Assembly (NCBI GenBank): GCA_030692565.1
Contig: JAUYAO010000057.1
Span: 1-64,000, forward strand
From: Nitrospira sp.
GTDB lineage: Bacteria > Nitrospirota > Nitrospiria > Nitrospirales > Nitrospiraceae
Length of the DNA: 64,000 nucleotides
Reading direction: 5' to 3'
In this document: positions 3,974-41,224 of the stretch, one piece after another
Layout: the number at the start of each line of letters is the position of its first letter
Position numbering within the stretch: the stretch's first letter is position 1
Program-made: the position numbers and the translations under genes
The notes under the pieces: generated by a model
What the model was told of the DNA's origin: nothing
The model's input: the letters and a program-made list of their open reading frames with translations, nothing else
Database searches by the model: none

Positions 3974-4096
3974 CAGGGTGCTGAAAAAGTCCGCCAGCGG
4001 CGTTCTCGCTTCACGAAGAAGCTCAACGTACCAACCTGGTACGCCTCGCCTCTTCGCTCACTGCGGCCTTGCTGGACGGCCCTTTTGAGCATCCTG
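3974..4096. repeat. 123-base palindromic repeat, copy 1
   Basis: This begins CAGGGTGCTGAAAAAGTCCG directly after the PHP stop codon and ends TTTTGAGCATCCTG. The outer ends are inverted repeats of each other, and the centre has GGTACG/CGTACC-type pairing around a short loop. Copies 2 and 3 at 48193 and 59348 have the same ends and the same CGTAC/GTACG centre with different loop bases. It is probably a non-autonomous mobile or structured repeat that may also end transcription. Confidence 0.85.
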
Positions 4097-4205
4097 TGGT
4101 TGTTGAAGCCGCGATACCGAAGAAGCATCATTGCCACGTTTACTTATTCACCGAGTTTCTCTGCAACCTGCTAACCCGCTCTTCCTGTGCGATTCCCGCT
4201 ATTCG

Positions 4206-4233
4206 TTGACTCTCCCGGCCTATCCGCTAGACT
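4206..4233 (+). promoter_or_regulatory. Predicted sigma70-type promoter of the kinase-phosphatase pair
   Basis: A -35 TTGACT (4206-4211), a 16-base spacer and a -10 TAGACT (4228-4233). Transcription would begin near 4240, which argues against the TTG start at 4234 and for the ATG at 4261. Predicted by eye only. Confidence 0.5.
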
Positions 4234-4260
4234 TTGGGCAGCTTCTCACTGAACCTATCC

Positions 4261-5661
4261 ATGACACACGCATCTGGCTGGCTCATTCAGTTCGCGATCG
4301 TCTCATTCGTGGCCCTGTTTGCAGGACCGCTCCTGAGCAAGCTGCCGTTTGCCGAACACTTTCCGCTGACCCTCCTCGGTTTGACGGGTCCGCAAACAAT
4401 TCGTCTCATCGCTGAGGGCACCGGCCTCCTCACACTCTGGCTCCTGGCCTTTCATGCCTTCCGCAATATGCCGGACAACGGGCGAGGATTCACCTTTGTC
4501 AGTCGCATCGTCCTTCCTCTGACCACGATCGTGGTCCTCATTGTCGGGGACAAGACCATGCAAGTGGTCGGACAATCGCTGATTGAAGACTTCGGCATCC
4601 AGCGATACAGCCTCGGCTATGCCGCCACTCTGGTCGTTGCCGGACTCTGGCTGACTGTGGCGTGGCTACTCAACATCGACGCCCTCCATCACTACTTCAC
4701 CGCCCCTGCGCCGACACGCAGTCGGAAGAAGACGCCTCAGACCGTCGACGAGAGTCATGACGTGCAGGAACGCTCCGGTCCTTCCGAATCTTCTGACTCA
4801 GTATCCGCAGATTCGCCCAACAATGGATCTCCCCCCGCAATGCTTGGACGGTACAAAGTCCTGAAGGAACTCGGACGCGGAGCCATGGGGGTCGTGTATC
4901 TGGGCAAAGATCCCACGATTCAACGATTCGTGGCCATCAAGACCATGCGGTTGGACGAGATCGACGATGCGGAGAAGCTCCAGGAAGTGAAGACCCGGTT
5001 TTTCCGTGAAGCGGAATCGACCGGCCGGCTCACACACCCCAATATCGTCACGATTTACGATGCGGGCGAAGAACAGGATCTCGGCTACATCGCCATGGAG
5101 GTCTTGGAGGGCACGACGCTCAAACACTGGTCGCGCAAACCCAACCTGCTGCCCCTCGACAAACTGATTCCGATCATTGCCACCGTCGCCGACGCCCTGG
5201 ACTACGCCCACCAGCAAGGCGTCGTGCACCGCGACATCAAGCCGGCCAATATCATGATCACCAAAGGCGCGACGGTGAAAGTCATGGATTTTGGCATCGC
5301 AAAGATGGCCTCGTCGTCGAAGACGCAAACCAACATTGTGCTCGGCACCCCTACCTACATGTCGCCGGAACAAATTGCCGGGAAAAAAGTCGACGGGCGA
5401 TCCGACATCTTCTCGCTGGGAGTCGTCCTCTATGAAATGCTGAGCGGCCGTCCCCCATTCACTGCGGATAACTTATCCGCCTTGCTCTTTGCGATTGCCC
5501 ATAATCCCCACCCCTCTATCAAGGTCATCCGTCCGGACATTCCTCCGGCTCTCCAACACGTGCTCAACCAAGCACTCGAAAAGGATCCGGCTATGCGATT
5601 CCGACGGGCGGCCGAGTTTGCCCAGGAACTGCGCGCTTGCCTGCAAGGCCAGACCGTCTAA
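4261..5661 (+). CDS. Membrane-anchored Hanks-type Ser/Thr protein kinase
   Basis: The N-terminal part (about residues 1-145) carries four hydrophobic segments. A Ser/Pro-rich linker follows, then a complete eukaryotic-like kinase domain from about residue 196: glycine loop GRGAMGVVY, catalytic Lys in VAIKTM, HRDIKPANIM, DFG in VMDFGIAK, and the activation-loop end GTPTYMSPEQ. The kinase is therefore cytosolic and tethered to the inner membrane by an unusual N-terminal rather than C-terminal anchor. There is no PASTA or other recognisable extracellular sensor domain. The PP2C phosphatase follows 12 bases downstream, so the pair likely forms a reversible phosphorylation switch. An alternative TTG start at 4234 would add nine residues but overlaps the promoter -10 element. 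Confidence 0.9.
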   Translation: MTHASGWLIQFAIVSFVALFAGPLLSKLPFAEHFPLTLLGLTGPQTIRLIAEGTGLLTLWLLAFHAFRNMPDNGRGFTFVSRIVLPLTTIVVLIVGDKTMQVVGQSLIEDFGIQRYSLGYAATLVVAGLWLTVAWLLNIDALHHYFTAPAPTRSRKKTPQTVDESHDVQERSGPSESSDSVSADSPNNGSPPAMLGRYKVLKELGRGAMGVVYLGKDPTIQRFVAIKTMRLDEIDDAEKLQEVKTRFFREAESTGRLTHPNIVTIYDAGEEQDLGYIAMEVLEGTTLKHWSRKPNLLPLDKLIPIIATVADALDYAHQQGVVHRDIKPANIMITKGATVKVMDFGIAKMASSSKTQTNIVLGTPTYMSPEQIAGKKVDGRSDIFSLGVVLYEMLSGRPPFTADNLSALLFAIAHNPHPSIKVIRPDIPPALQHVLNQALEKDPAMRFRRAAEFAQELRACLQGQTV

Positions 5662-5673
5662 CTTGAGGAGCCC

Positions 5674-6489
5674 ATGCCGCTGGCCGTCACCCATAGCGCC
5701 CTCTCCGATATCGGTCGCAGACGATCGCATAATGAAGATCGTTACTGCACCGACACCACCTTAGGGCTCTTCATCGTCTGCGACGGCATGGGCGGCAGCA
5801 AGGCCGGCGAGATTGCCAGCGGCCTCGCGGTCGAAACTATCCATCGCCATATCAATGAAGCGTCACAGAACCCTGCGTTCCCGTTGATCGGCCAATCCGA
5901 CCCCACCATGTCGCTCTCGGGGAATCGCCTCCTCAGCGCGACTCGCGATGCCAATCGCGTCATTCATCGTGAGGGGCGCAGAAATCCGGACTGGGCCGGG
6001 ATGGGAACGACCGTCGTCGCGGTGCTGCTTGCAGACCGGCTGATGTCGTTCGCCCATGTCGGTGACAGTCGCCTCTACCTGGTCCGCGCCCACGCCATCC
6101 AACCCCTGACAGCCGATCACTCATGGGTGGCCGAACAGGTGCGCTCCGGCCTGATGACTGAAGCCGAAGCCGAGCGATCGCCACAGCGCAACATCGTCAC
6201 CCGCGCCGTGGGAGTGGCACCGGATGTCGACATTACCATCGGCGAGGCGGAGCTGCAGGTAGGTGACCGTCTCTTGCTCTGTTCGGATGGGCTGACAAAA
6301 TACGTCGGGACAACGAGGCTCCTCAATGTCCTCACGCAAACCGATGACCTGAACGACGCAGCCCGGCAACTGGTCGCCCTCGCCAATGATGCCGGCGGAG
6401 ACGATAATACGACGGTCATCACCGTGGCGGTCCATGAGGCCATGGAGCAGCCGATGTGGAATCGGCTCCGTCAACGACTGGCCATGTAG
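5674..6489 (+). CDS. PP2C-family Ser/Thr protein phosphatase
   Basis: A 271-aa PPM/PP2C phosphatase without membrane segments. Metal-coordinating motifs are present in order: RRSHNEDRY near residue 15, CDGMGG at about 36, GMGTTVVAVL near 109, HVGDSRLYL near 128, CSDGLTKYV near 203 and DDNTTVITV near 250. The start follows a clear GAGGAG ribosome site and lies 12 bases after the kinase stop. It should dephosphorylate the kinase upstream or its substrates; the fused order of these genes is a common bacterial arrangement. The gene ends at an imperfect hairpin (6489-6515) that may terminate the operon. Confidence 0.92.
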   Translation: MPLAVTHSALSDIGRRRSHNEDRYCTDTTLGLFIVCDGMGGSKAGEIASGLAVETIHRHINEASQNPAFPLIGQSDPTMSLSGNRLLSATRDANRVIHREGRRNPDWAGMGTTVVAVLLADRLMSFAHVGDSRLYLVRAHAIQPLTADHSWVAEQVRSGLMTEAEAERSPQRNIVTRAVGVAPDVDITIGEAELQVGDRLLLCSDGLTKYVGTTRLLNVLTQTDDLNDAARQLVALANDAGGDDNTTVITVAVHEAMEQPMWNRLRQRLAM

Positions 6490-6515
6490 CGACACCTCAC
6501 CAGCCGAGATGTCGC
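6489..6515 (+). terminator. Possible hairpin terminator after the PP2C gene
   Basis: An inverted repeat GCGACACCTC / GAGATGTCGC with one mismatch and a 7-base loop, at the stop codon of the phosphatase gene and in the gap between two convergent genes. There is no T-tract, so this is a weak call. Confidence 0.35.
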
Positions 6516-6575
6516 GTGACCCCGGTTCGAGTAGTCTGGGATCTGGAATAGATATCGTCGAGTGATCGAGACTGG

Positions 6576-7196
6576 CTAGTTCCTGAGGGTGAGTGCGCCT
6601 TTAGGTAACGTTGCGTAACATCCGTCCGACACGTCCTGAGCGTGATCCTGCAAGCACTGCAACATCTGCCCCTCTCCTGACGGCACCTCGCGACAGAAGC
6701 GTTTGACATCATCCGCACAGGCCACCGCATGGCCGGACCGTTCCTTCCACCGCACGAGCTGCTGGCGAATCATCGACTGACAAGGGGACGGAAGCTGCTT
6801 GGCCCGCTGCTCCATGCAACGTCGGCGATCCTCGCCTTGCAGGCTATCGGGACAGGCCTGCTGCAGTTCGGCCTCACATTTCATCTCCGCGATTTGCCTT
6901 GCGCGGGGATCTAATGCAACGACTGCCCCCCCCAGGCCCTGCTCGGGTTGAGGTATCTCCGCCCCATTGACGACGACTCGATGCGAGCCCGGTGCATCCG
7001 GCGCCGGCACCCCTGGAATGCTCAGGTCCAGCGCGGGCGTCGGAGGAGTGGCGTTCATCGATCGAGACGAAACGCCGGATGCATGGAGCTGATCTTTGGT
7101 GGGCATATTGGCCCAGACCAGTCCCCACACCAATCCCAACCCGACAATGGTCACAAGGATGGCCGTCAGACGGCTTGATGATGATGGCTTCGGCAT
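6576..7196 (-). CDS. Membrane-anchored protein with cysteine-rich GLG1-type repeats
   Basis: A 206-aa protein with one N-terminal hydrophobic segment (about residues 10-30: AILVTIVGLGLVWGLVWA), a Pro/Ser-rich linker and a Cys-rich C-terminal half. The last 60 residues (CADDVKRFCREV, GEGQMLQCLQDH, VSDGCYATL) fit the Golgi apparatus protein 1 (GLG1) Cys-rich repeat, PF00839, with C..D..RFC and CL..H spacing. An earlier degenerate repeat is visible (CEAELQQACPD, CMEQRAKQLPSPC). The Cys-rich part should lie outside the inner membrane. The gene is convergent with the phosphatase gene. GLG1 repeats occur in environmental bacteria without a defined role, so function is unknown. Confidence 0.7.
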   Translation of the reverse strand: MPKPSSSSRLTAILVTIVGLGLVWGLVWANMPTKDQLHASGVSSRSMNATPPTPALDLSIPGVPAPDAPGSHRVVVNGAEIPQPEQGLGGAVVALDPRARQIAEMKCEAELQQACPDSLQGEDRRRCMEQRAKQLPSPCQSMIRQQLVRWKERSGHAVACADDVKRFCREVPSGEGQMLQCLQDHAQDVSDGCYATLPKGALTLRN

Positions 7197-7286
7197 GATG
7201 TAGGCCTAGGATAGGACAACATCTGAAGAAAAGCACCGAAAGGCGAGATTCTGAACAGTGCGCAAGAGAGAACTCTCTGGGAGAGA

Positions 7287-8300
7287 CTAGTTCTCCGACG
7301 TCTCGACGATATGATTTTCGAACCTCGTACAGCCCTCTGCCAGCAATCGATTGGTCAGCATTTCGCCGGGCCATTCGATCGGCAAGTCGGCAGTGAACAC
7401 CCAGACATCCGGAGACGTCCAGACCGGTCCATGCTCCTCCGGCAGTTCCGGATCGAACAGATCGGTCCACACGGGCATATAGACGCCGTTGCCGCATTGC
7501 GTATGCAGGTGTACGACCGTCCGCGACCGGACCAAGGGATCGAGATCCCGCCACACTGCCGCCGTTTCATCGGCCAGATGATGGATACGCACCGCATTCT
7601 GCGCATCGAACATCGCATAGGCCGCATAGACCGGGACCTCGATGGTATCCGGCGCCAGCGCCAATTCAGGGCACTGCTCGACCAGACCTTCAAGAATCGC
7701 CCGCCGATGCCGATCCTCCCAGGAATCAGGCAGCCCGGGATCGGACGCGCCGATAATTTCAAACAGCAAGAACGCGGTATTTTCCACCGGCGGGTACAGT
7801 CGTGCGGCGATCGCTTGCGTCCGCTCCGAGTCTGCCACCGAGGTCAAATGGTCGTGCAGCATCTGGAGATTGAGCGGCTCCAGCGTCGCGTCGGTCAGCA
7901 GTCTCGATTCCACCCGCACCACCGTGCCGGCCGACAAGCACAGATGCCGGTGGAGCAACTCCGCGGTGGCTATAGGATCAATTTTGAGCTTGAGCGGGGC
8001 CGTGAGGTTGGCTTGCAGGGGAAGCTCCAAGGCCGCCATCGTGGCGTAGACCGGTTTTTCTTCCGTCGATTCATCCAGCGCCAACGTACAACTGGCTTCC
8101 GCCAGCAGATCGAACAACCATTCGGCCATTTCTTCATCGAGCGCAGCCAGAACGGTCAGCAGGTCGGACTCGCGCCCCTGCTCTAGAAAGGCTTGCAACG
8201 TATCGATCGCCGCGTCGGTGTCGCCGTGATCATGGCGACGCGCATTGATCAAGTGGATGAGGTCGCGGGTGAGCGGATCGGGACGAGACCAAGCCAACAT
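7287..8300 (-). CDS. Unrecognised 337-aa acidic cytosolic protein
   Basis: I do not recognise a family. The protein is acidic and soluble, with no signal peptide or membrane segment. The N-terminal third is helical (leucine-rich, DLIHLINARRHDHGDTDAAIDTL). The middle and C-terminal parts alternate strands and helices and include a His-rich stretch (VHLHTQCGNGVYMPVWTDLFDPE). It is followed on the same strand by the Cys-rich protein gene about 90 bases later, possibly as an operon. The frame is long, intact and GC-typical, so a real gene is very likely. Confidence 0.65.
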   Translation of the reverse strand: MLAWSRPDPLTRDLIHLINARRHDHGDTDAAIDTLQAFLEQGRESDLLTVLAALDEEMAEWLFDLLAEASCTLALDESTEEKPVYATMAALELPLQANLTAPLKLKIDPIATAELLHRHLCLSAGTVVRVESRLLTDATLEPLNLQMLHDHLTSVADSERTQAIAARLYPPVENTAFLLFEIIGASDPGLPDSWEDRHRRAILEGLVEQCPELALAPDTIEVPVYAAYAMFDAQNAVRIHHLADETAAVWRDLDPLVRSRTVVHLHTQCGNGVYMPVWTDLFDPELPEEHGPVWTSPDVWVFTADLPIEWPGEMLTNRLLAEGCTRFENHIVETSEN

Positions 8301-8445
8301 CAGACGCTCCTCAAATTGCCGGAAAAGGACTCTTGCTCACCGACATGGCACGATCTCCATGTTGCCAAAGAATCTACGCAGGAGCAAGGGCGAAGACAGT
8401 TCCTGCGACCGGACTTCCGGCACCAACGGCGGGATACAGCACTCA

Positions 8446-8859
8446 TCATTCACCAATCACTTTCACCAGCACACGCTTTCTTCGCCGCCCGTCAAATTCA
8501 CCGTAGAAGATCTGTTCCCAGGGGCCGAAATCAAGCCGCCCATCCGTCACCGCCACCACGACTTCACGCCCCATTAGCTGGCGCTTCACATGGGCATCGC
8601 CGTTGTCTTCGCCGGTCTCGTTATGCCGGTACACCGCGTCGTGCGGCGCCAGTCGTTCGAGCACGTCGTCGTAGTCTCGGAGCAGTCCCGGTTCGTCGTC
8701 GTTAATATAGACGCTGGCGGTGATGTGCATCGCGTTGACCAGCACCAGCCCTTCCTTCACTCCGCTCGCGTTGAGAACGGCTTCGACCTGAGGCGTGATG
8801 TTGAGATAGGCGCGGCGCGTCTTGGTCTCGAACCAGAGTTCCTCTCGATACGACTTCAT
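8446..8859 (-). CDS. YjbQ/UPF0047-family protein (thiamine phosphate synthase-like)
   Basis: A 137-aa protein that carries the family signature almost throughout: [21 protein letters not shown]...[13 protein letters not shown], and the C-terminal [19 protein letters not shown]. Members are small trimeric enzymes. The E. coli representative YjbQ has weak thiamine phosphate synthase activity that rescues thiE mutants, but the natural reaction is unsettled. Conserved His and acidic residues of the putative site are intact. It is divergently arranged from nrdJ with about 120 bases between, which must hold both promoters. Confidence 0.9.
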
Positions 8860-8971
8860 CGGCCCAACCTATTCGTGCGTGTCTCGACGGGCATTCTGCC
8901 GAACGGTCCGCCCGAGATTCAAGTGGCAGGCGAGAATCAGCGACTCGATTCGCCCCGCACCCGAAACGGAC

Positions 8972-8977
8972 TATAAT
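8972..8977 (+). promoter_or_regulatory. -10 element TATAAT, consistent with a leaderless nrdJ mRNA
   Basis: A perfect TATAAT overlaps the ATG at 8976, with a weak -35 (TTCGCC, 17 bases upstream). Transcription would start around 8984-8985, exactly at the next in-frame ATG. If this is the promoter, the mRNA begins with its start codon. Confidence 0.45.
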
Positions 8978-8984
8978 GAAGATC

Positions 8985-10736
8985 ATGACCGAGAGGCCAC
9001 CACGCGCATTACCGCAGCCACTCTCCGCCAACGCCACCACCGTCTTGGCACAGCGGTACCTCGCAAGAAACCTGACGGGCACCGTGGCCGAAACACCGGC
9101 GCAGCTCTTTTGGCGCGTCGCGCACGATATCGCCCAAGCCGAACGCACCTACCCGCCTCCGACCAGACAGCCGCATCTCGCGCGGCGGTTCTTTGACCTG
9201 ATGGCTCGCCTCGACTTCCTGCCGAATTCGCCGACCCTGATGAACGCGGGGCGTCCGCTGCAGCAACTGTCGGCCTGCTTCGTCCTTCCGGTTGAGGATA
9301 CGCTCGCGTCGATTTTCGATGCCGTGAAGTATCAGGCCTTGATTCACCAATCGGGAGGGGGCACGGGGTTTTCCTTCAGCCGGCTTCGCCCGCGGGCTGA
9401 CCGCGTCGCCACAACCAACGGAGTCGCCTCCGGTCCGGTCTCGTTCATGCAGGTTTTCAACCTCTCGACCGACGTCATTAAACAGGGCGGCACCCGGCGC
9501 GGTGCAAATATGGGCATTCTACGGGTCGATCACCCGGATATTCTTGAATTCATCGCCCTCAAGCAGAACCAGTCTGAGATGACCAATTTCAACCTGTCTG
9601 TCGGCATCACCGATCGATTCATGCAAGCCCTGACACGTCAGCAGGCGATTCCGCTCATCAATCCTCACACAGGCCAAACCATTCGCCGCGTGGCGGCGCA
9701 AGCCATTTTCGATCAACTGGTCCAGGCAGCCTGGCAATCCGGAGAGCCCGGCATCGTATTCTTGGATACGATCAATCGAGCGAATCCCACCCCTCACCTG
9801 GGTGCAATCGAAGCCACCAATCCCTGCGGAGAGCAGCCCCTCCTTCCTTACGAGTCCTGCACGCTCGGCTCCATCAACGTCGCCAACTTTGTGGTGACCC
9901 GCTCAGGAAAACCGGCGATCGACTACGATCGATTGCATCGCACCATTCCAACTACGGTGCGATTTCTTGACAACGTGCTCGATCGCTCCCATTTCCCCTT
10001 GCAGGCCATCAAGGACCAAACCGCGCTCACCAGAAAGATCGGCCTCGGCATCATGGGCTTTGCCGATCTGCTGATCCATCTCGGCATTCCGTATAACTCG
10101 GACGAAGCCTTGACGGTCGCAGAAGAACTGATGAGTGTCATCCAAACCCAGGCTCACGAAGCGTCGACTCAGCTGGCACGCGAGCGCGGGGTGTTCCCCG
10201 CCTATCGCGGCAGCCGCCTGCAAACACACCGACAACGTTGGCGCAATGCCACGGTCACAACCATCGCTCCCACCGGCACGATCAGCATCATTGCGGACTG
10301 CTCTGCCGGAATCGAGCCGCTCTATGGCATCCACCTCGTACGCACGGTGATGGACGGCATGGCACTCGCCAGCCTTCATCCTGCATTCGTACGACACGCC
10401 GAAACGCACGGCCTGGCGCTCCCGTCGCTCCAACGTGAGTTGGAACAGAGCGCCTCAATCCAACACCTCACCCAGCTGCCGGCGTCCCTGCGACAGCTCT
10501 TCATCACCGCCCACGACGTGTCGCCGTCGCATCACGTACGAATGCAAGCAGCCTTCCAACGCCATAGTGACAGCGGCGTCTCGAAAACGATCAACCTGCC
10601 CCCCTCGGCGACGCCTCAAGACGTCGCCGGGGCTTTCCAGCTCGCCCATCGCCTCGGCTGCAAAGGGCTCACCGTATTTCGTTCCGGGAGTCGACGCGAT
10701 CAGGTCCTGTCCTGCTCACAGCAACAATCCTGCTGA
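8985..10736 (+). CDS. nrdJ: Adenosylcobalamin-dependent (class II) ribonucleoside reductase
   Basis: A 583-aa enzyme that reduces ribonucleotides to deoxyribonucleotides with a B12-generated radical, independent of oxygen. Visible hallmarks: NSPTLMNAG at about 75-85, LSACFVLP with a substrate-site Cys, GGGTGFSFSRLRP, NPCGEQPLLPYESCTLGSIN carrying active-site Asn/Cys/Glu, and APTGTISIIADCSAGIEP. The C-terminus ends CSQQQSC, the redox-active Cys pair. It is shorter than many class II enzymes and has no ATP cone at the N-terminus. An ATG at 8976 would add three residues but overlaps a TATAAT box. Its B12 need fits the cobalamin-binding protein gene at 12485. Confidence 0.93.
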   Translation: MTERPPRALPQPLSANATTVLAQRYLARNLTGTVAETPAQLFWRVAHDIAQAERTYPPPTRQPHLARRFFDLMARLDFLPNSPTLMNAGRPLQQLSACFVLPVEDTLASIFDAVKYQALIHQSGGGTGFSFSRLRPRADRVATTNGVASGPVSFMQVFNLSTDVIKQGGTRRGANMGILRVDHPDILEFIALKQNQSEMTNFNLSVGITDRFMQALTRQQAIPLINPHTGQTIRRVAAQAIFDQLVQAAWQSGEPGIVFLDTINRANPTPHLGAIEATNPCGEQPLLPYESCTLGSINVANFVVTRSGKPAIDYDRLHRTIPTTVRFLDNVLDRSHFPLQAIKDQTALTRKIGLGIMGFADLLIHLGIPYNSDEALTVAEELMSVIQTQAHEASTQLARERGVFPAYRGSRLQTHRQRWRNATVTTIAPTGTISIIADCSAGIEPLYGIHLVRTVMDGMALASLHPAFVRHAETHGLALPSLQRELEQSASIQHLTQLPASLRQLFITAHDVSPSHHVRMQAAFQRHSDSGVSKTINLPPSATPQDVAGAFQLAHRLGCKGLTVFRSGSRRDQVLSCSQQQSC

Positions 10737-27083: not shown

Positions 27084-29414
27084 ATGCAGGCCAAGCCGAT
27101 GCCCAACAATCTCCAGGAGTTGCAACAAAAAGGCGAGTTCGCGGAACACGTCAAGAAGATCACCGCTCAAATTAACGCGGCCAGCGATCTCGACCAAATT
27201 CTTCTCGACCTGCATAAAGACATCCTGGGCCTGTTCGACGCCGAGGACCTCACCCTCTTTGCATTCGACTCAGAGAAGAAAGAAATCTTTTCCAAAGCCC
27301 TCCAAGTCGATGGCGTCCAAGAAGTCCGCATTCCCATCTCCGAACAAAGCCTTGCCGGTTTTTGCGCAAAATATCTCCGCCCGGTCAATATCGCCGATGC
27401 CTATAATATGGCCGAGCTCCAAGGCATCCACCCGGCCCTCCTTCATGACACATCTTACGACAAGAACACCGGGTTCAAGACCAAACAGGTCTTGACCTAC
27501 CCGATTGTCGCCGACAACAAATACCTCATGGGCGTCCTCCAGCTGCTGAATAAAAAAAGCGGCAGCCGCTTTACCAGAAAAGATGAAGAGTCGGTCGCCG
27601 AGATCGCCAAGGCCCTCGGCATTGCCTTTTTCAACCTACGGAAGTCCACAAAGAAGAATCCCACAAAATTCGACCACCTCATCGGCAGCGGAAAGATTAC
27701 GCAGAACGACCTGGAAAACGTCCTCGCTGAAGCGCGCAAAGGCACCAGCGATCTCGAAAGCATCCTGATCGAAAAATATAAAGTGCCGAAACTCGACATC
27801 GGCAAATCGTTCGCTCAATTCTACAAGTGCCCGTATATCGAGTTCAGCGAACGCACCCTGGTCGACATCGAACTCCTCAAGAATCTGAACGTCGACTACC
27901 TGAGAAAAAATCATTGGATGCCGCTGAAACGCGATCGCACGGCCATCGAGATTCTGACTGATGACCCCGGCGATCTCGACCGAGTTCAAGACATTAAGCG
28001 AACATTCCCCGGCTTAAACATCCGCTTTGCGGTCAGCTTACGGCGGGACATCGCACAGTTCCTGGCTTCCGCCACCGGCCAAAGCGATGCAGGAGGGAGC
28101 GGCGGAGGCCGAAAACTCGACGAAAACGTCTCAGACATTCTCGGCGAGCTCGTCACGGAAGCTCAAGCCGAAGCCATGGAAGATGCGTCGGCCGGGGGTG
28201 GCCTTGATGAAAACGACAGCGCCATCGTTCGTCTTGCCAACCAGATCATCGCTGACGCCTTCAGACAGAACGCCTCGGATATTCATATCGAGCCCTACGG
28301 GGAAAAACGCGAGACACTCGTCCGGTTCCGTGTCGACGGCGATTGCTTCGAATACATGAAAATCCCCCAGAGCTACCGGCGCGCGATCGTGTCCCGCTTG
28401 AAAATCATGGCCAGCTTGGACATCGCCGAACGGCGCAAGCCGCAGGACGGCAAAATTAAGTTCAAGCTCAGCGAGACCAAAGAGATTGAGCTCCGCGTCG
28501 CCACCATTCCGACATCCGGATATAACGAAGATGTCGTCATGCGTATCTTGGCCGCCAGTGAACCCTTGCCGCTCGACAAGATGGGGTTCTCGGACCGCAA
28601 TCTCAAAGGCATTAAAGATATTTCTGAAAAACCCTACGGCATCATTCTCTGCGTCGGACCGACCGGATCAGGAAAAACCACCACGCTCCATTCCGTGCTG
28701 GGGAATATCAATACTCCGGACATTAAGATCTGGACCGCCGAAGACCCCGTCGAAATTACCCAATATGGCCTGCGCCAGGTCCAAGTTCAGCCCAAGATCG
28801 GCTTTACTTTTGCCACTGCGATGCGGGCCTTCCTCCGCGCCGACCCCGATGTGATCATGGTCGGAGAAATGCGCGATAAAGAGACCGCCGATACCGGCAT
28901 CGAAGCCTCGCTCACCGGACACTTGGTGCTCAGCACCTTGCACACCAACAGCGCCGTGGAAACCGTGACCCGTCTCCTGGACATGGGCTGCGACCCCTTC
29001 AGCTTTGCCGATGCCATGCTCGGTGTGCTCGCCCAGCGGTTGGCTCGGCGCATCTGCAAAGATTGCAAAGAACAGTATGTGGGTTCGCCCGAAGAATACG
29101 AAGAGCTTCGGCAGGGCTATGGCGCCGAGCGCTGGGACAAACTGGGCATTAAGCAGGACAACACGTTCCGTCTTTCTCGCGGGAAAGGGTGCGAGGTCTG
29201 TAATCGCACGGGCTATAAAGGACGCGTGGCACTCCACGAACTCCTGCTTGGATCGGACAACATTAAGCGGATGGTCCAGCAGAAAGCCCGCACCGAGGAC
29301 ATGCTGCACTGTGCAATGGATGAAGGCATGACGACCCTCGTCCAGGACGGCATCCAAAAAGTATTGCTCGGTCAAACGTCCTACAAAGAAGTCAAAGCCG
29401 TCGCTATCAAGTAG
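27084..29414 (+). CDS. pilB: Type IV pilus assembly ATPase PilB with an N-terminal GAF domain
   Basis: 776 aa in four parts. A GAF sensor domain (about 20-190; VRIPISEQSLAGFCAKYLRPVNIADAYN, YPIVADNKYLMGVLQLLNKK). An MshEN/T2SSE N-terminal domain (about 200-320). A secretion ATPase with Walker A GPTGSGKTTTL, Asp box TAEDPVEI, Walker B DPDVIMVGEMRD and His box. A zinc site CKDCKEQ...CEVCNRTG. PilB powers pilus extension in the cytosol. The GAF domain could tie extension to a small ligand or redox state. Usual T4P partners (pilT, pilC) are not next to it. Motifs are intact; the GAF fusion is a Nitrospira/Deltaproteobacteria-like variant. Confidence 0.92.
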   Translation: MQAKPMPNNLQELQQKGEFAEHVKKITAQINAASDLDQILLDLHKDILGLFDAEDLTLFAFDSEKKEIFSKALQVDGVQEVRIPISEQSLAGFCAKYLRPVNIADAYNMAELQGIHPALLHDTSYDKNTGFKTKQVLTYPIVADNKYLMGVLQLLNKKSGSRFTRKDEESVAEIAKALGIAFFNLRKSTKKNPTKFDHLIGSGKITQNDLENVLAEARKGTSDLESILIEKYKVPKLDIGKSFAQFYKCPYIEFSERTLVDIELLKNLNVDYLRKNHWMPLKRDRTAIEILTDDPGDLDRVQDIKRTFPGLNIRFAVSLRRDIAQFLASATGQSDAGGSGGGRKLDENVSDILGELVTEAQAEAMEDASAGGGLDENDSAIVRLANQIIADAFRQNASDIHIEPYGEKRETLVRFRVDGDCFEYMKIPQSYRRAIVSRLKIMASLDIAERRKPQDGKIKFKLSETKEIELRVATIPTSGYNEDVVMRILAASEPLPLDKMGFSDRNLKGIKDISEKPYGIILCVGPTGSGKTTTLHSVLGNINTPDIKIWTAEDPVEITQYGLRQVQVQPKIGFTFATAMRAFLRADPDVIMVGEMRDKETADTGIEASLTGHLVLSTLHTNSAVETVTRLLDMGCDPFSFADAMLGVLAQRLARRICKDCKEQYVGSPEEYEELRQGYGAERWDKLGIKQDNTFRLSRGKGCEVCNRTGYKGRVALHELLLGSDNIKRMVQQKARTEDMLHCAMDEGMTTLVQDGIQKVLLGQTSYKEVKAVAIK

Positions 29415-29431
29415 GATGACGCCCCTCTCAT

Positions 29432-29463
29432 GCGGAGCCGCTTGCGCACGCAAGCGGCTCCGC
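29432..29463 (+). terminator. 14-bp perfect hairpin after pilB
   Basis: GCGGAGCCGCTTGC and its complement around a 4-base loop, 17 bases after the pilB stop and 50 before the next gene. No T-tract follows. Confidence 0.55.
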
Positions 29464-29513
29464 AACCCCCTCCCCCACTTTCTGCCTTCGACAAAATCAG
29501 GTACACTAGCGCC

Positions 29514-30764
29514 ATGAATCCCCCTGCATCGATATTAAGGCTGCTCGTTTTGCCCATGGCTCTCTCCGCCTCGGGCTGTGAGACCGCCGATCACGTCCTG
29601 ACAAGTGCCGAAAAGGTGCTCGGTAGCCAAACGGGAAAAACCGTCGTCAGCATTGCCGGAGGCAAAGACCCCAAACAAGTCCTCAAGGAACACACCGACG
29701 CATATCAGCGCGACCCTGAATCCGTCTTGCGCGATATACGAACCTTGCAGCGCGACTTCGAGACCATCATGGCCGCTTTGACCGGTCGGGTCCGCCAAAC
29801 ATGGGGGGAGAAAGAAATAAAGGTTCCGGAGCAGAAGAAATACGTCAAGTACACCCAGAACTATATGAGCCGAGCAGTCGTCGACTTTGATAGCGGGACG
29901 ATCGTGATTGAAACACTGGACGACAAGGCTCCCAAAGACAGCCTGAAAAATGCCCTCGTCACCACACTCCTGACCCCCGATGATCCTCGATCCGTCGATC
30001 TCTTTTCCGACAAGGCTGTCACGCTCACCAGCGACAAGCCGCCTTACCTCCTAGGCCTGGTTGTGGACCAAGAGGGGCGAGCGATCAAGACTCCGGCGCA
30101 AGCGGAAGCCTTTGCGACGTTTACGGTCGAAAACCACGCAAAGCTGCGATCGATTGATCAGAACGGCGTAGCCAAACAGGCCCTCCTCGCAGAAATTAAG
30201 ATGGTCGCCAACTTCTCGAACAGGCAGGCTGAAAAATACCGCAGCACGGTCATCCGGTATGCCGAACAGTTCAAGGTCAGTCCCAGCTTGATCTTTGCGG
30301 TGATTCGCACAGAAAGCAATTTCAACCCCTTTGCCGTCAGCTCCGCACCGGCCTTTGGGCTCATGCAGCTCGTGCCCAGCAGCGGGGGACGCGATGCCTA
30401 CAAGAAAGCCAAGGGCAAAGACTCCATTCCCTCTCGAGACTACCTCTTCGACCCCGAGAACAATATCGAGCTGGGCAGTGCCTATCTCAATGTCCTGTCC
30501 TATAACCTGCTGGAGCGCATCGAGAACCAGGTGGCCAGAGAATATTGCGTGATTTCAGCCTATAACACCGGTCCGCGCAACGTGTTCAAATCATTTGCTC
30601 AGGATCAAACCGCTGCCATCAACCAAATCAATTCACTTCAACCTCCGGCCGTCTATGACCGGCTACGAGCGAATCTGCCCTATCAAGAAACCCGCGACTA
30701 TCTCGCCAAAGTCGTCGGCTTTCGCAAGCAATTTATTGCCGTATCCGGAGAAGGCGTCAAGTAA
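29514..30764 (+). CDS. Lytic murein transglycosylase, MltC-like lipoprotein
   Basis: A 416-aa lipoprotein: signal peptide with lipobox LSASGC near residue 20, then an MltC-type N-terminal domain (DUF3393-like; YVKYTQNYMSRAVVDFDSGTIVIETLD), then an SLT domain from about 260 with the catalytic Glu in AVIRTESNFNPFAVSSAPAFGLMQLVP and the AYNTGPRNVFKSF motif. It cuts peptidoglycan glycan strands from the outer membrane. I chose the ATG at 29514 for a proper signal sequence. It is downstream of pilB; pilus passage through the wall is a plausible but unproven link. Confidence 0.9.
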   Translation: MNPPASILRLLVLPMALSASGCETADHVLTSAEKVLGSQTGKTVVSIAGGKDPKQVLKEHTDAYQRDPESVLRDIRTLQRDFETIMAALTGRVRQTWGEKEIKVPEQKKYVKYTQNYMSRAVVDFDSGTIVIETLDDKAPKDSLKNALVTTLLTPDDPRSVDLFSDKAVTLTSDKPPYLLGLVVDQEGRAIKTPAQAEAFATFTVENHAKLRSIDQNGVAKQALLAEIKMVANFSNRQAEKYRSTVIRYAEQFKVSPSLIFAVIRTESNFNPFAVSSAPAFGLMQLVPSSGGRDAYKKAKGKDSIPSRDYLFDPENNIELGSAYLNVLSYNLLERIENQVAREYCVISAYNTGPRNVFKSFAQDQTAAINQINSLQPPAVYDRLRANLPYQETRDYLAKVVGFRKQFIAVSGEGVK

Positions 30765-30840: not shown

Positions 30841-31260
30841 CTAGCGAGGCTGCCGTTCAGATGTGCCTGCACCTGGGGACAGTGACGAAGCAGATGCTCC
30901 ACGGCTAACACACTTGTCCAACCGTGTCGCTGCGACCGGTGAGAGTAAAGAGAACTCGACCCCGAAGACGGAATCCTTCACCCACCGAACCGTCGCCCGA
31001 TCGATAAAGGTTGATACCCGCTGATGCGGCAATCGTAAACTGATCGCAATCTCATCACCCGGAGCCACCACTGCCTCACTCAACATTCTGGCACCTGCAA
31101 CTGAGAGATCGCACACCACCCCAAGACCGCCACGATTGACCGTCGCCCATTTCTTCAGTCCGACCAAGGCATAGGAGCAGGGAAATGGAGCTGAAACTCG
31201 GAGACGTGGGTTGCGCCGCCGTGAGGAAATCTCATGTGTCGTGATCCGGGAATTCGCCAA
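30841..31260 (-). CDS. PilZ-domain protein 1
   Basis: 139 aa. The c-di-GMP binding pattern is present: an RxxxR-type motif in SSRRRNPRLRVSAPF near residue 14-24, and D-L-S-x-x-G in VVCDLSVAGARML, followed by the PilZ barrel end (TVRWVKDSVFGVEF). A Ser-rich tail of about 25 residues follows the barrel. It is the second gene of a two-gene minus-strand unit, 12 bases after its paralogue. It probably acts as a c-di-GMP receptor for a nearby surface or stator system. Confidence 0.85.
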   Translation of the reverse strand: MANSRITTHEISSRRRNPRLRVSAPFPCSYALVGLKKWATVNRGGLGVVCDLSVAGARMLSEAVVAPGDEIAISLRLPHQRVSTFIDRATVRWVKDSVFGVEFSLLSPVAATRLDKCVSRGASASSLSPGAGTSERQPR

Positions 31261-31272
31261 GGCCGACCTCGC

Positions 31273-31653
31273 TTATCTGATCCCTCTTGAGAACACCGTC
31301 ATATATCGTCGAAGCCGCCCATGGGAGGTACTCGACAACCGCTGAAAGGCCAGTCCGTATATCTGATCTTTCGCCCAGCGAACCGTGGCAATAGCAATCT
31401 CCGCAGGAGCCGCTTGCCGCGGCAACCGAACCAGCAACGACACCTGGTCGCCAGGCTTGATGGGGGCTTCCGTACTGACCCGCATTCCCCGCAATGAAAG
31501 GTCGTACACAACACCCGGACCATGAACAGACTTTCCAAACCAGCGCTGCTCATCACGCCAGGCAAGTTCGCAGGCAATGGGGGTAGGAATACGCACTCGA
31601 GGGTGCCGACGAAACTTGTTCAGCATCGAAGGGCGTGATGTGCTCGTCGGCAT
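31273..31653 (-). CDS. PilZ-domain protein 2
   Basis: 126 aa, a paralogue of the downstream PilZ gene with the same signature: KFRRHPRVRIPTPIACEL for the Arg motif and VVYDLSLRGMRVS for the D.S..G motif, ending TVRWAKDQIYGLAFQRLS. Both ligand motifs look intact, so c-di-GMP binding is likely. It is divergent from the ZorA/ZorB-like pair with about 250 bases between. It has no extra domain. Confidence 0.88.
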   Translation of the reverse strand: MPTSTSRPSMLNKFRRHPRVRIPTPIACELAWRDEQRWFGKSVHGPGVVYDLSLRGMRVSTEAPIKPGDQVSLLVRLPRQAAPAEIAIATVRWAKDQIYGLAFQRLSSTSHGRLRRYMTVFSRGIR

Positions 31654-31906
31654 AACTGAAACCTCTCAATTGACTGTATCTCACCCTCTTCTCCCCTCAA
31701 ATACTTTTTTTGAATCTCACCATCCTCCAAGATTCTGTCCTGCCCCTCACGCTGAGAATACCGTGCGACAGCAGACCTGAAGGCCGCATGAACCCGGCAG
31801 AAACTTCCGCCTGAGGGAACAATATGCTCTGCCCTTCGCAAGTCCATCGACAATTGCGCCAATCGGCGTGCATCTCCGACACACCGTAGTGGCACGAAAG
31901 TTGGAC

Positions 31907-33193
31907 ATGATGCCGCCCATGATCATCCAACATGCCATTCAACTGTTGACCCAGGACGTTGCCCCTCTGGGTGCTCTCTCCGCTCCTCTTGTCAGCTGGT
32001 ATGGCTCTACAGGCCTGACGATATTCTTCCTTTGGCAAGTCGCCCGGCTGTATCAGCTATCGACACAGACCGCGCAACCGTTCGCGCGTGTGACACGCTG
32101 CTTAGATAAACTGGCCCAAGAACGCTTGCAACTCGACCAGGACGGATTGACGCTCAACCCTCCAGGAGCCTTGAAAAGCAGAACGCAAGAACCGCCGCCA
32201 CACTTGGACCGACGGGACGGGAAGGATTTTCAGCTTATCGATACGACATTTCAGCGAGAGCCCTGGCTATCCCCTGCCTGGAAGCAATACCGGAAGACGC
32301 TCGTGACGGAACAGGTCGCCTGGTACATCGAACCCCGCATATTTAGCTCTCGTTCCGCCCAGGAACTCTTCTCGCTTGAAACCATCTTTCGAGGAAAGCT
32401 GAATCTCGCCTGGTATCAACAAGTGCCGTCCCTCCTGACAGGGATCGGCCTCCTACTCACATTTATTGCGCTCCTCGTAGGCCTTAGCAAGCTACACGCC
32501 GACGGTCACGGCATTGCCGGAATTCAAGGCCTCATCAACGGGCTCGCCGGAAAATTCCTGACCTCGATCGTCGGGCTTGTCTGCGCAACCGCCTTTACCC
32601 TGATAGAGAAGCCGCTCATGTTTCGCTTGTTCTCGGCCCACCAGCAATGCACTCACTTGATTGATGATCTGTTTCCGCGAAAAACACTGGAACAGATCCT
32701 CGAAGGAATGACGGGGACCCTGCGTCGACCCTCTTCGCTGGAACAGGGATCGAAATATGCTCCCCCCCTACCCTATCAGCCAGCAACTGACACACTCACC
32801 CAACCCTTGAAGGCAATGACGAAATCGGTGGATGCCCTGACGCAAGAAATTCGCGCGCACCTACAGGCCGGGAGCGCGCCGCCAGCCACCTATCCAATCG
32901 ACTCCATCGCCAAAGCTTTCGCTCCGCTTATCCAACAGCTCGCGCTCGCATTGGCGCAACTGCCGCAACGATCTGAGCCTCCACCAGCCCAGCGTTTGTC
33001 TTTACCCCAAGGGGTCGATGATCTGGTGGATGATTTAACCTCCAGAATCACTCAGACGCCCCATTCCACAACGGGAGCGCCAGCTCGCCAGCCGCAAGGA
33101 TGGCTGCAGCGACTCCGCACCTCGACACATCGACTCGCGCCTCTTTCAGGAATCACACAAAGTAGAACTATCAAATCCCGTGATCCACGATGA
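31907..33193 (+). CDS. ZorA-like MotA/TolQ/ExbB-family proton-channel subunit
   Basis: 428 aa. One N-terminal membrane segment (TGLTIFFLWQVARLY) is followed by a hydrophilic region of about 100 residues. Then come two adjacent membrane segments with the family pattern QVPSLLTGIGLLLTFIALLVGLSKL and LTSIVGLVCATAFTLIEKPL. The long C-terminal part (about 190 residues) is cytosolic and helical, with a Pro/Ser-rich end. This fits anti-phage ZorA better than flagellar MotA. I chose the ATG at 31907 because a GTG at 31868 only adds a polar stretch. It is followed by the ZorB-like gene after 41 bases. No ZorC, ZorD or ZorE gene is in the window. Confidence 0.72.
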   Translation: MMPPMIIQHAIQLLTQDVAPLGALSAPLVSWYGSTGLTIFFLWQVARLYQLSTQTAQPFARVTRCLDKLAQERLQLDQDGLTLNPPGALKSRTQEPPPHLDRRDGKDFQLIDTTFQREPWLSPAWKQYRKTLVTEQVAWYIEPRIFSSRSAQELFSLETIFRGKLNLAWYQQVPSLLTGIGLLLTFIALLVGLSKLHADGHGIAGIQGLINGLAGKFLTSIVGLVCATAFTLIEKPLMFRLFSAHQQCTHLIDDLFPRKTLEQILEGMTGTLRRPSSLEQGSKYAPPLPYQPATDTLTQPLKAMTKSVDALTQEIRAHLQAGSAPPATYPIDSIAKAFAPLIQQLALALAQLPQRSEPPPAQRLSLPQGVDDLVDDLTSRITQTPHSTTGAPARQPQGWLQRLRTSTHRLAPLSGITQSRTIKSRDPR

Positions 33194-33234
33194 GATGTCC
33201 CCGGACTTCCTAAACCACTGAGAAGACATTCCCC

Positions 33235-33948
33235 ATGTACCCGAATAACCCCGGCTCCCATTCGACAATTTCCCACACGACGACCAACGGGCTCATGGAC
33301 TTGATGACGTCACTCGCCATTATTTTCGTCCTACTCCTTGCAGCCTCACTCGCACCACAAGCAGCCCAGGACGCTCCGACCCACACACCAACGCCTCCCC
33401 AAACTACCGTCGCCGACCCCGCGACGCCGCTCACGAGCAACGTTCAAACCTTGCTCTACGAGCACTTCGCGCAATTCGGACTCTCCGTGGACAACGACCC
33501 GCATGATCCACTGCTCATGAGGATCGTCATCCCCGAAGATCTGCTCAATTTCGACTCTGGGAAAAGCACCTTGACGCCGCAGGCTGATCGATTTCTCACC
33601 GACATGATGCCACGCTATGCCGTCCTCGTATGCGGGCCGCTTGAGTCCCATGTCGACTCAGTCGTGATTGAAGGACATACCGATGATCGCGGCGACGACG
33701 CGATGAACTTGCGATTGAGCCAAGAACGCTCCTTCCGCGTGATGACGAAGGGCCTCGAGGTCATCGACCGCACAGAGCCAACCGTCTCACCGTGCTTCCA
33801 ACGGCTGACATCGGCGAGTGGCCGAGGCCGGCAAGACCTCATCGCTGATCCTGCGACCGGAGTGGATCGAGAGAAAAGCCGCCGCGTTATCTTCAAACTT
33901 CGTCTCCGGTCCGCTCCGATACCACACACTCTTCCACATACATCCTAG
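33235..33948 (+). CDS. ZorB-like MotB/OmpA-family channel subunit
   Basis: 237 aa with one N-terminal membrane segment preceded by Asp (NGLMDLMTSLAIIFVLLLAASLA). This matches the DLMSxL pattern of ZorB, in which the Asp is the likely proton carrier. A Pro/Thr-rich linker leads to a C-terminal OmpA-type peptidoglycan-binding domain (FDSGKSTLTPQADRFL, VVIEGHTDDRGDD, LSQERSFRVM, EKSRRVIFKL). Partner of the upstream ZorA-like protein in a membrane motor/channel complex. An 18-base gap separates it from the promoter of the next small gene. Confidence 0.78.
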   Translation: MYPNNPGSHSTISHTTTNGLMDLMTSLAIIFVLLLAASLAPQAAQDAPTHTPTPPQTTVADPATPLTSNVQTLLYEHFAQFGLSVDNDPHDPLLMRIVIPEDLLNFDSGKSTLTPQADRFLTDMMPRYAVLVCGPLESHVDSVVIEGHTDDRGDDAMNLRLSQERSFRVMTKGLEVIDRTEPTVSPCFQRLTSASGRGRQDLIADPATGVDREKSRRVIFKLRLRSAPIPHTLPHTS

Positions 33949-34186: not shown

Positions 34187-34351
34187 ATGGCGAAACGCGA
34201 CCGTGAGAAGTCGCTTCAAACGAAGCGGAAAGAAAAGGAAGAAAAGCGTGCGCAGCGGAAAGGTGAAAAAGACGACCGCACGTCAATTCCTGCAGGAGAA
34301 GATCCGGATTTGGAAGGATTGCAGTGGGGGCCGCAGCCGCCCCTGTATTAG
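34187..34351 (+). CDS. Lys/Arg-rich 54-aa micro-protein, family copy 1
   Basis: 54 aa (starts MAKRDREKSLQTKRKEKEEK) with a strongly basic helical half and an acidic-proline end (PAGEDPDLEGLQWGPQPP). It is a paralogue of the protein at 41527, which has the same basic half and EDPDLAG. The ATG has AGGA at a good distance. Bases are used as in a coding frame, and the paralogue supports it as a real gene. The basic half could bind RNA or ribosomes. Function unknown. Confidence 0.65.
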   Translation: MAKRDREKSLQTKRKEKEEKRAQRKGEKDDRTSIPAGEDPDLEGLQWGPQPPLY

Positions 34352-34394: not shown

Positions 34395-34733
34395 TTAGGC
34401 AGGACGGACAAACCGATCGTCGCCAAGTGCCCCCCGTAACCGCTGGGTCACAAGTCGACGGAACTCTACTTTCTGTTTCAGAATCAGCGCCAAGCCCTCC
34501 GCATCCACTAACACCAGCAGATCATCCTCAACGACCAGCGTTCTCGCTTGATCCCCGAGATTGACGCGATACTGCGTGCGGCCATCGGGATTCCGGCCGG
34601 TCCCCGTGACGAGTTCGGTAAGCCCATCAATGACACCCTCCTGATTGTCCGTCCGCAACCGCACCTTGGTTCCATCAGGAATTCTGACCCACGGTGCGCT
34701 GGGCTTGACCGGGAGGCTTTGCGTCTCAGGCAT
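34395..34733 (-). CDS. WVRIPDGT-family protein, copy 1 (unknown function)
   Basis: 112 aa. A predicted beta-rich N-terminal half (WVRIPDGTKVRLRTDNQEGV, IDGLTELVTG, RNPDGRTQYRVNLG) is followed by a helical end (LALILKQKVEFRRLVTQRLRGALGDDRF). It is clearly a paralogue of the protein at 40883: both share WVRIPDGT, EGVIDGLTE, RNPDGRTQYR and DRF at the C-terminus. I do not recognise a named domain; the N-terminal part resembles a small SH3/KOW-like barrel by strand pattern only. The ATG at 34733 follows AAGGGAA and gives the same length as the paralogue. It is downstream of the helicase gene on the same strand. Confidence 0.75.
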   Translation of the reverse strand: MPETQSLPVKPSAPWVRIPDGTKVRLRTDNQEGVIDGLTELVTGTGRNPDGRTQYRVNLGDQARTLVVEDDLLVLVDAEGLALILKQKVEFRRLVTQRLRGALGDDRFVRPA

Positions 34734-40531: not shown

Positions 40532-40882
40532 TCCTGAGATTCCAATCCACGTCCAAGCTGAGATATCTTGGCGTTTTCGACAATGCCCCTCGTCACAGCT
40601 AGCGCCCTCGGGCACCGATAGCGCACGTGCACGGAACGTGGAAGAAGAAGCGCGTAGCCTGGAAAGGCAGAGTCGTTCGCTATGTCGGCAGAAGCGTGCT
40701 AAACTTATTTTGTACAGACTTCTGATAGCTTCCTATCTGTTTCGTCAGCGATCCTGCTCACTCCGTCCTTCGCAATCGATCCGGCAGTTGTCATTGTGCT
40801 TCCGTCCGGAACTCTGAGCATCACCCATTCATCGGCCGACTCGTGGACGCCACTAGTCCGCGTCCGCAAAGGAGACTCCTGT

Positions 40883-41224
40883 ATGACACAGAAACCCACC
40901 TCGCAGGCTCAACCCCTCGCATCAGATTGGGTCCGCATCCCTGATGGCACCAGGGTTAAACACCGCCTCGAAGGGCACGAAGGAGTGATTGACGGGTTAA
41001 CCGAAATGGTTTCCGGCGCGATGCGGAATCCGGACGGGAGAACCCAGTACCGGATGAATATTGGAACCTCGACCCGGCAACTCGTCACCCAAGACGACCT
41101 GAATATTCTCCTCGATCGTGAGAATCTGGTCATCATGGTCCGCCAAAAAGAGCCGTATCGACGCTCTGTCACTGAGCGATTACACAGCATCCTTAGCGCG
41201 GACCGATTCATCAAATCCGCGTAA
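40883..41224 (+). CDS. WVRIPDGT-family protein, copy 2 (unknown function)
   Basis: A 113-aa paralogue of the protein at 34395: WVRIPDGTRVKHR, EGVIDGLTEMVSG, RNPDGRTQYRMNIG, then LNILLDRENLVIMVRQK and a C-terminal helix ending ADRFIKSA. AAAGGAG serves the ATG at 40883. The best-conserved part is the N-terminal 50 residues; the family has no recognised domain. It leads a plus-strand unit with the genes at 41279 and 41527, then the RRM and desaturase genes. The invariant Arg and Asp residues suggest a binding protein rather than an enzyme. Confidence 0.75.
   Translation: MTQKPTSQAQPLASDWVRIPDGTRVKHRLEGHEGVIDGLTEMVSGAMRNPDGRTQYRMNIGTSTRQLVTQDDLNILLDRENLVIMVRQKEPYRRSVTERLHSILSADRFIKSA

What the first reader, a model, noticed from the sequence alone, without database searches (positions are those of the whole stretch)
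30841..33948. ZorA/ZorB-like motor pair without Zorya effectors, facing two PilZ proteins
The pair matches anti-phage ZorA/ZorB (QVPSLLTG in ZorA; DLM...FVLLL plus OmpA domain in ZorB). No ZorC, ZorD or ZorE gene follows. Instead two c-di-GMP receptor-type PilZ genes face it. In flagellar systems PilZ protein YcgR controls the MotA stator, so a c-di-GMP-gated stator outside the flagellum, for defence or surface movement, is possible.
Basis: partly seen in the sequence, partly recalled or inferred. Interest (0 to 1): 0.6.

Follow-up and report, generated by a model that had tools for sequence, protein, structure and literature searches.

The report
Effector-less Zorya-type motor in Nitrospira
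Almost every Nitrospira genome carries a short-tailed relative of the ion-driven motor that bacteria use in the Zorya anti-phage system, but without the DNA-attacking partners; the two c-di-GMP (PilZ) genes beside it in this window are there by chance of gene order.

Summary
31868-33948 (+) encodes a ZorA/ZorB-type A/B stator pair, no ZorC, ZorD or ZorE follows, and two PilZ genes lie beside it. They are divergent from the pair (pointing away), not facing it. The pair belongs to the Zorya branch of 5:2 motors, not MotAB, TolQR or ExbBD: by profile, fold search and tree. It differs from genuine Zorya I. The ZorA tail is 171 aa (129-192 across relatives) against 381-595 aa; the two glutamates of the E. 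coli ZorA calcium site are replaced in all 35 sequences checked; ZorC and ZorD are absent; it scores below every NCBIfam ZorA cut-off. It is in 31 of 34 other Nitrospira genomes, with a tree broadly congruent with ProS and under purifying selection. Genuine ZorD occurs in 4 of 395 Nitrospirota genomes. The PilZ idea fails: the PilZ pair belongs to an older gspE-slt-PilZ-PilZ-DEAD block, present without the motor in four genomes (one has no such motor at all), while G014 has the motor there without PilZ. Best reading: a Zorya-derived stator kept as a core, probably envelope-related, gene pair; function inferred only. Novelty: new variant of a known kind.

The parts
31868..33193 (+). ZorA-like A subunit (441 aa; start probably TTG 31901, ATG 31907 or ATG 31910): predicted three TM helices (model helices 41-94, 180-211, 220-268), a cytoplasmic domain with two short strands, and a short tail from residue 271
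32405..32671 (+). TM2-TM3 core of the ZorA-like protein (residues 180-268) with invariant P187, T191, T198 and S233 (T198 and S233 align with T147 and S184 of E. coli ZorA)
32678..33190 (+). short cytoplasmic tail (residues 271-441), low-confidence interrupted helices; genuine ZorA1 tails are 381-595 aa
33235..33948 (+). ZorB-like B subunit (237 aa): one TM helix (model helix 17-38) and an OmpA-like peptidoglycan-binding domain
33298..33300 (+). codon of the invariant ZorB Asp22 (DLMTSLA motif), the ion-carrying aspartate by alignment with ZorB of solved ZorAB structures
31273..31653 (-). neighbour, not part of the motor: PilZ-domain protein with RxxxR and DxSxxG motifs; belongs to the gspE-slt-PilZ-PilZ-DEAD block
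30841..31260 (-). neighbour, not part of the motor: second PilZ-domain protein with RxxxR and DxSxxG motifs; same block
29430..30764 (+). neighbour: MltC/SLT lytic transglycosylase, anchor of the older block
34187..34351 (+). small basic ORF (54 aa, MAKRDREKSLQ...), between zorB and the small minus-strand gene; role unknown
34395..34733 (-). small conserved protein, no Pfam match, next to zorAB in the window clade and in G014

Best explanation
The locus encodes an inner-membrane 5:2 ion-driven stator of the Zorya (ZorAB) branch that works without ZorC and ZorD. Inferred mechanism: ions pass the ZorB Asp22 within a ring of ZorA Thr/Ser, the ZorA pentamer turns around a ZorB dimer anchored in peptidoglycan by its OmpA domain, and the short tail couples this to an unknown partner. 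It is inherited vertically as a core gene pair of Nitrospira, most likely in a standing cell-envelope role rather than as a mobile anti-phage system. Shown: branch membership, lack of linked effectors, short tail, loss of the calcium-site glutamates, near-universal presence in the genus, purifying selection, conserved ion-path and peptidoglycan-binding residues. Inferred: stoichiometry, rotation, ion flow and the envelope role.
For: PADLOC ZorA1 and ZorB1 best; only ZorA chains among solved motors by sequence; Foldseek of the model: ZorAB entries 2.3e-8 to 1.6e-5, TolQ/ExbB 4e-3 or worse, flagellar stators 0.06 or worse; ZorB model tops 8vvi and 8qyd. Tree: standalone pairs form one clade (95/99) inside the ZorAB clade (99/95 from MotAB, TolQ, ExbB). 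Tail 129-192 aa against 381-595; calcium-site Glu absent in 35 of 35; T198 and S233 invariant. 31 of 34 genus genomes against ZorD in 4 of 395 Nitrospirota. Distances track ProS (Mantel r 0.88, 18 of 25 splits shared). dN/dS 0.11-0.28 for zorA and 0.06-0.16 for zorB, 0.00-0.02 in the TM core. No plasmid match.
Against: No experiment. The ZorA model is of modest quality (pLDDT 61.5, tail unreliable) and no complex was modelled. No partner gene follows the pair through its different flanks, so an envelope role is inferred from distribution only. The pair moves between genomic sites, which housekeeping genes do less often. Whether it lost ZorCD or never had them is unresolved (AU p 0.09 and 0.14).
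Confidence: 0.5

Rival explanations
1. It is still an anti-phage motor: the pair senses envelope damage during infection and acts alone or through effectors encoded elsewhere in the genome.
For: Nearest kin are ZorAB of genuine Zorya I, including operons in Nitrospirota; ion path and peptidoglycan-binding residues are kept.
Against: Long tail missing and calcium-site residues replaced; tail truncation abolishes defence and ZorAB is not sufficient (PMC11890865, PMC8565338); no ZorD in the own genome, where the best SNF2 hit scores 248 bits against 715 for real ZorD; core distribution; housekeeping neighbours.
Confidence: 0.22
2. It is a non-flagellar motility or adhesion stator (surface movement, pili or appendage assembly), in the manner of AglRQS or GldLM.
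For: The genome has a separate flagellar MotAB and three TolQ/ExbB-type pairs, so this is an additional motor; in the window clade it sits near a GspE/PilB-like ATPase with a MshEN domain.
Against: The pilus-type ATPase belongs to the older block, not to the motor; no motility gene follows the pair in other flanks; it is outside the MotA and TolQ/ExbB branches.
Confidence: 0.13
3. One reading: a stator gated by c-di-GMP through the two adjacent PilZ proteins.
For: Two PilZ genes with intact c-di-GMP motifs, divergent from zorA, conserved beside it in the window clade; a REC-GGDEF gene adjoins the pair in another context.
Against: PilZ pair without the motor in G012, G005, G017 and G021, motor without PilZ in G014; REC-GGDEF block without the motor in G005 and G017; 42 PilZ matches in the genome.
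Confidence: 0.05
4. A decaying remnant of a Zorya operon that lost its effectors and is drifting away.
For: Missing ZorC/ZorD and short tail.
Against: Purifying selection on both genes, invariant functional residues, retention as a pair across the genus and order.
Confidence: 0.02

Closest known systems
Zorya type I ZorAB (E. coli 8QYD, Shewanella 8VVN; Nitrospirota operons L181, L182, L269)
   Same: A/B pair, DLMTS/A aspartate motif, Thr/Ser ion-path residues, OmpA peptidoglycan-binding domain, strands in the cytoplasmic domain, closest in sequence, fold and tree
   Different: no ZorC or ZorD; tail 129-192 aa instead of 381-595; calcium-site Glu replaced; core and vertical instead of patchy
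Zorya type II ZorAB (8VVI) and type III (ZorF/ZorG)
   Same: 5:2 motor branch, OmpA-type B subunit (8VVI is the top PDB hit of the ZorB-like model)
   Different: weaker ZorA2 match (1.6e-8 against 2.8e-22 for ZorA1); no effector-like neighbour (ZorE, ZorF and ZorG models were not run separately); type II ZorA is smaller than type I (PMC11890865)
Flagellar MotAB and its YcgR/PilZ control
   Same: general stator architecture; OmpA-type B subunit
   Different: separate branch of the tree; the genome has its own MotAB beside a CheW-like gene; no conserved PilZ partner
TolQR / ExbBD
   Same: three-TM A subunit, 5:2 motor superfamily
   Different: B subunit with OmpA domain instead of the ExbD/TolR domain; separate branch; own TolQ/ExbB-type pairs present

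Membership tests
Zorya (type I) anti-phage system | ZorA/ZorB stator pair of the Zorya branch | tested here: met
Zorya (type I) anti-phage system | ZorC and ZorD encoded with the pair | tested here: not met
   no such ORF at the locus; no ZorD-grade hit in the genome, 248 bits against 715 in G283; the EH-signature search of the genome was negative but without a positive control
Zorya (type I) anti-phage system | long ZorA cytoplasmic tail, required for defence (PMC11890865) | tested here: not met
   171 aa here, 129-192 in relatives, 381-595 in five genuine ZorA1
Zorya (type I) anti-phage system | calcium-site glutamates (E86 and E89 of E. coli ZorA, PDB 8QYH title) | tested here: not met
   Q/S/V and K/Q/T/M/R in all 35 standalone sequences; variable in some genuine ZorA1 too (E86 kept in 4 of 5, E89 as E or D in 3 of 5), so weak as a criterion
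Zorya (type I) anti-phage system | NCBIfam ZorA curated cut-offs | tested here: not met
   60.8 bits against 100 (NF033915), 42.9 against 750 (NF041794); no phylum member reached the NF033915 cut-off, genuine ZorA1 included, so weak as a criterion
Zorya (type I) anti-phage system | patchy distribution typical of defence systems | tested here: not met
   31 of 34 genus genomes; ZorAB distances follow ProS
Zorya (type I) anti-phage system | protects against phage | not testable with these tools
   needs an experiment
5:2 ion-driven rotary motors (superfamily) | B-subunit TM aspartate and A-subunit Thr/Ser ring | tested here: met
   ZorB D22 invariant; ZorA T198 and S233 invariant
5:2 ion-driven rotary motors (superfamily) | A5B2 stoichiometry and ion-driven rotation | not testable with these tools
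   no complex modelled; needs cryo-EM and ion-flux assays
Flagellar MotAB | places with MotA in tree and profile | tested here: not met
   no PF01618 match; tree
TolQR / ExbBD | places with TolQ/ExbB | tested here: not met
   tree 99/95 split; Foldseek E 4e-3 or worse
PilZ-controlled stator | conserved linkage of PilZ with the stator | tested here: not met

The most novel reading that the evidence does not exclude
A phage-defence motor was domesticated in the ancestor of the Nitrospirales: a Zorya I ZorAB lost its DNA-attacking partners and most of its tail and became a general, vertically inherited envelope stator, a further physiological class of 5:2 motor beside Mot, Tol, Ton and the gliding motors.
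Probability: 0.35. Interest if true: 0.7.

Novelty: new variant of a known kind. Interest (0 to 1): 0.45.

Why it matters
ZorAB is known for defence and was reported to be insufficient without its effectors. A ZorAB-type motor kept as a core gene pair of a nitrifier genus, with the effectors and most of the tail gone, would show either that this motor has a role of its own in the cell envelope or that defence motors can be domesticated. It also warns annotators: such pairs can be named 'anti-phage ZorAB' although the system is incomplete. I found no paper on effector-less ZorAB in the library searched; most subscription journals are not in it.

Tried and rejected
PilZ linkage: rejected by gene order with and without the motor. 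REC-GGDEF linkage in the KsgA context: looked promising with only 7 GGDEF matches in the own genome, rejected because the block is intact without the motor in G005 and G017. Mobile-element explanation for the insertion at this site: no direct repeats of note at the ends and no plasmid match. EH_signature search for ZorC in the own genome was uninformative because nothing rang in the controls; the ZorD search with positive controls replaced it. Test of nested versus sister position to Zorya I: unresolved (AU p 0.09 and 0.14). The 2024 structural paper on E. coli Zorya was not in the library under the DOI I tried, so residue equivalences rest on alignment to PDB chains and PDB titles.

Full report
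What is there. The window lies in contig C57 of a 4.17 Mb genome of the genus Nitrospira; the genus is named by the titles of close relatives found by scan. On the + strand 31868-33193 encodes a 441-aa ZorA-like protein and 33235-33948 a 237-aa ZorB-like protein, 41 nt apart. Two PilZ genes lie upstream on the - strand, pointing away from zorA; both carry the RxxxR and DxSxxG c-di-GMP motifs (read from the sequence). PADLOC profiles give ZorA1 2.8e-22 and ZorB1 1.5e-34. Pfam gives only OmpA for ZorB and PilZ for the neighbours; the ZorA-like protein matches no Pfam family. The four MotA_ExbB (PF01618) hits of the genome are other genes: a MotAB beside a CheW-like gene, and three TolQ/ExbB-type pairs. 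So the genome has at least five stator pairs.

Which branch. A profile of 22 relatives finds, among solved motors, only ZorA chains (8VVN 3.3e-14, E. coli ZorA 4.5e-11 to 2e-9, 8VVI 1.1e-3); the ZorB profile finds 8VVI, 8QYD and 8VVN first. AlphaFold models (ZorA pLDDT 61.5 with an unreliable tail; ZorB 79.5) match ZorAB structures best by Foldseek, with TolQ/ExbB at 4e-3 or worse and flagellar stators at 0.06 or worse. The ZorA model has two strands in the cytoplasmic domain; additional beta structure there is given as a Zorya trait in PMC12505986. In a tree of A core plus B subunit the standalone pairs form one clade (95/99) within the ZorAB clade, which is split from MotAB, TolQ and ExbB with 99/95. 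A-subunit trees put them with the ZorA of genuine Nitrospirota Zorya I (99/95 and 98/95). Whether they are nested within Zorya I or sister to it is not settled (AU p 0.09 and 0.14).

Genuine Zorya I as yardstick. L181 (same family), L182 and L269 (same phylum), two operons of G341 (same genus, L270, L271), a contig of the viral collection (L261) and plasmids (L223, L224, L226, L262) carry ZorA of 607-773 aa with ZorB, ZorC and ZorD (L182 runs off its contig inside zorD; the ZorC and ZorD calls in L261 are my reading of its ORFs). Against five of these, the standalone ZorA tails are 129-192 aa instead of 381-595, and the positions of the E. coli calcium-site residues E86 and E89 hold Q/S/V and K/Q/T/M/R in all 35 (the site is named in the PDB title of 8QYH). 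Genuine ZorA1 vary there too, so this is a weaker criterion. The ion path is kept: ZorB D22, ZorA T198 and S233 are invariant. The OmpA domain keeps the NxxLSxxR motif. In PMC11890865 the ZorA cytoplasmic extension, the ZorB peptidoglycan domain and the aspartate are needed for defence, and the three Zorya subtypes have the differential distribution typical of anti-phage systems. PMC8565338 states that ZorAB is not sufficient for defence.

Distribution. The ZorA-like gene is in 31 of 34 other genomes of the genus, a single copy in all but G001, which has a second weak hit (4e-11); it is absent from G002, G021 and the 54%-complete G015, also by profile. A scan of 84,980 species genomes gives 133 loci; the best 80 are Nitrospirota by title except one Rokuibacteriota MAG and one titled Nitrosospira. 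No plasmid match; one contig of the viral collection carries a genuine Zorya I instead. Genuine ZorD is in 4 of 395 Nitrospirota genomes, and the own genome has no ZorD-grade hit (best 248 bits against 715). ZorAB distances follow ProS distances (Mantel r 0.88, 0 of 2000 permutations as high; 18 of 25 splits shared, the conflicts lying within one subgroup of the genus). Both genes are under purifying selection: dN/dS zorA 0.11-0.28, zorB 0.06-0.16, TM core 0.00-0.02, tail 0.18-0.46.

The PilZ question. The window arrangement (gspE, slt, PilZ, PilZ, zorA, zorB, small gene, DEAD) is found in five fetched close relatives (97-81% ZorA identity), the most distant of which (G022) keeps one PilZ clearly and the second only in part. 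G014 (about 50%) has the pair at the same site without PilZ. In G012, G005, G017 and G021, whose ZorAB is elsewhere or absent, gspE-slt-PilZ-PilZ-DEAD is intact with 87-217 nt between PilZ and the end of the DEAD match. So the PilZ genes belong to the older block and the motor came in beside them. In about 20 fetched genomes the motor instead sits beside a REC-GGDEF gene and KsgA, but anmK...REC-GGDEF-lipoprotein-KsgA is intact without the motor in G005 and G017, and its anmK-REC-GGDEF part in G000, G022 and G030. Other flanks (QueD/sulfatase-modifying-factor-like genes, a hybrid kinase, HflX, FtsX/MscS and more; named by eye) show no adjacent c-di-GMP gene that I recognised; L077 and L078 have a PilZ-like gene a few genes away. 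Only zorA and zorB stay together.

How it works. Shown: a conserved, selected, Zorya-branch A/B stator without linked effectors and with a short tail. Inferred: A5B2 rotation by ion flow, ZorB anchored in peptidoglycan, tail coupling to an unknown partner. Distribution and neighbours favour a standing envelope role over a mobile defence system, but no partner gene was identified and no phenotype is known. My weights: envelope or housekeeping stator 0.5, defence in trans 0.22, motility or adhesion 0.13, PilZ-gated 0.05, remnant 0.02.

Novelty and interest. Effector-less ZorAB was not found in the papers searched; the stator family is known, and NCBIfam and PADLOC models already recognise its relatives as ZorA and ZorB. 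This is a new variant of a known kind. It is of interest because it makes the question 'what does ZorAB do without effectors?' testable in a core gene pair.

Noticed in passing
L261 (IMGVR_UViG_3300042516_006151), 3090-10423: A contig of the viral collection carries what reads as a complete Zorya type I operon (ZorA 639 aa, ZorB, ZorC, ZorD).
   Followed up: partly
   Followed up: partly
window 27084-29414 +: GspE/PilB-like ATPase with GAF and MshEN domains (MshEN binds c-di-GMP in MshE, from memory), next to slt and the PilZ pair: this older block may itself be a c-di-GMP-controlled pilus or secretion module.
   Followed up: no
genome G000: 42 PilZ matches but only 7 GGDEF matches: many c-di-GMP receptors for few cyclases.
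   Followed up: no
window 34395-34733 - and 40880-41224 +: Two paralogous small proteins (WVRIPDGT... motif); the first has no Pfam match and sits next to zorAB in the window clade and in G014.
   Followed up: partly
L128 (Rokuibacteriota MAG), 6998-8639 +: A standalone ZorA (329 aa, still shorter tail) and ZorB in another phylum, next to a CHAT-domain-like TPR protein and a cyclase-domain protein (read by eye); transfer or mis-binning not examined.
   Followed up: partly
L039 (G022), PilZ region: In this close relative the PilZ gene nearest zorA matches only over a short stretch (84% over 96 nt); it may be diverged or broken.
   Followed up: no
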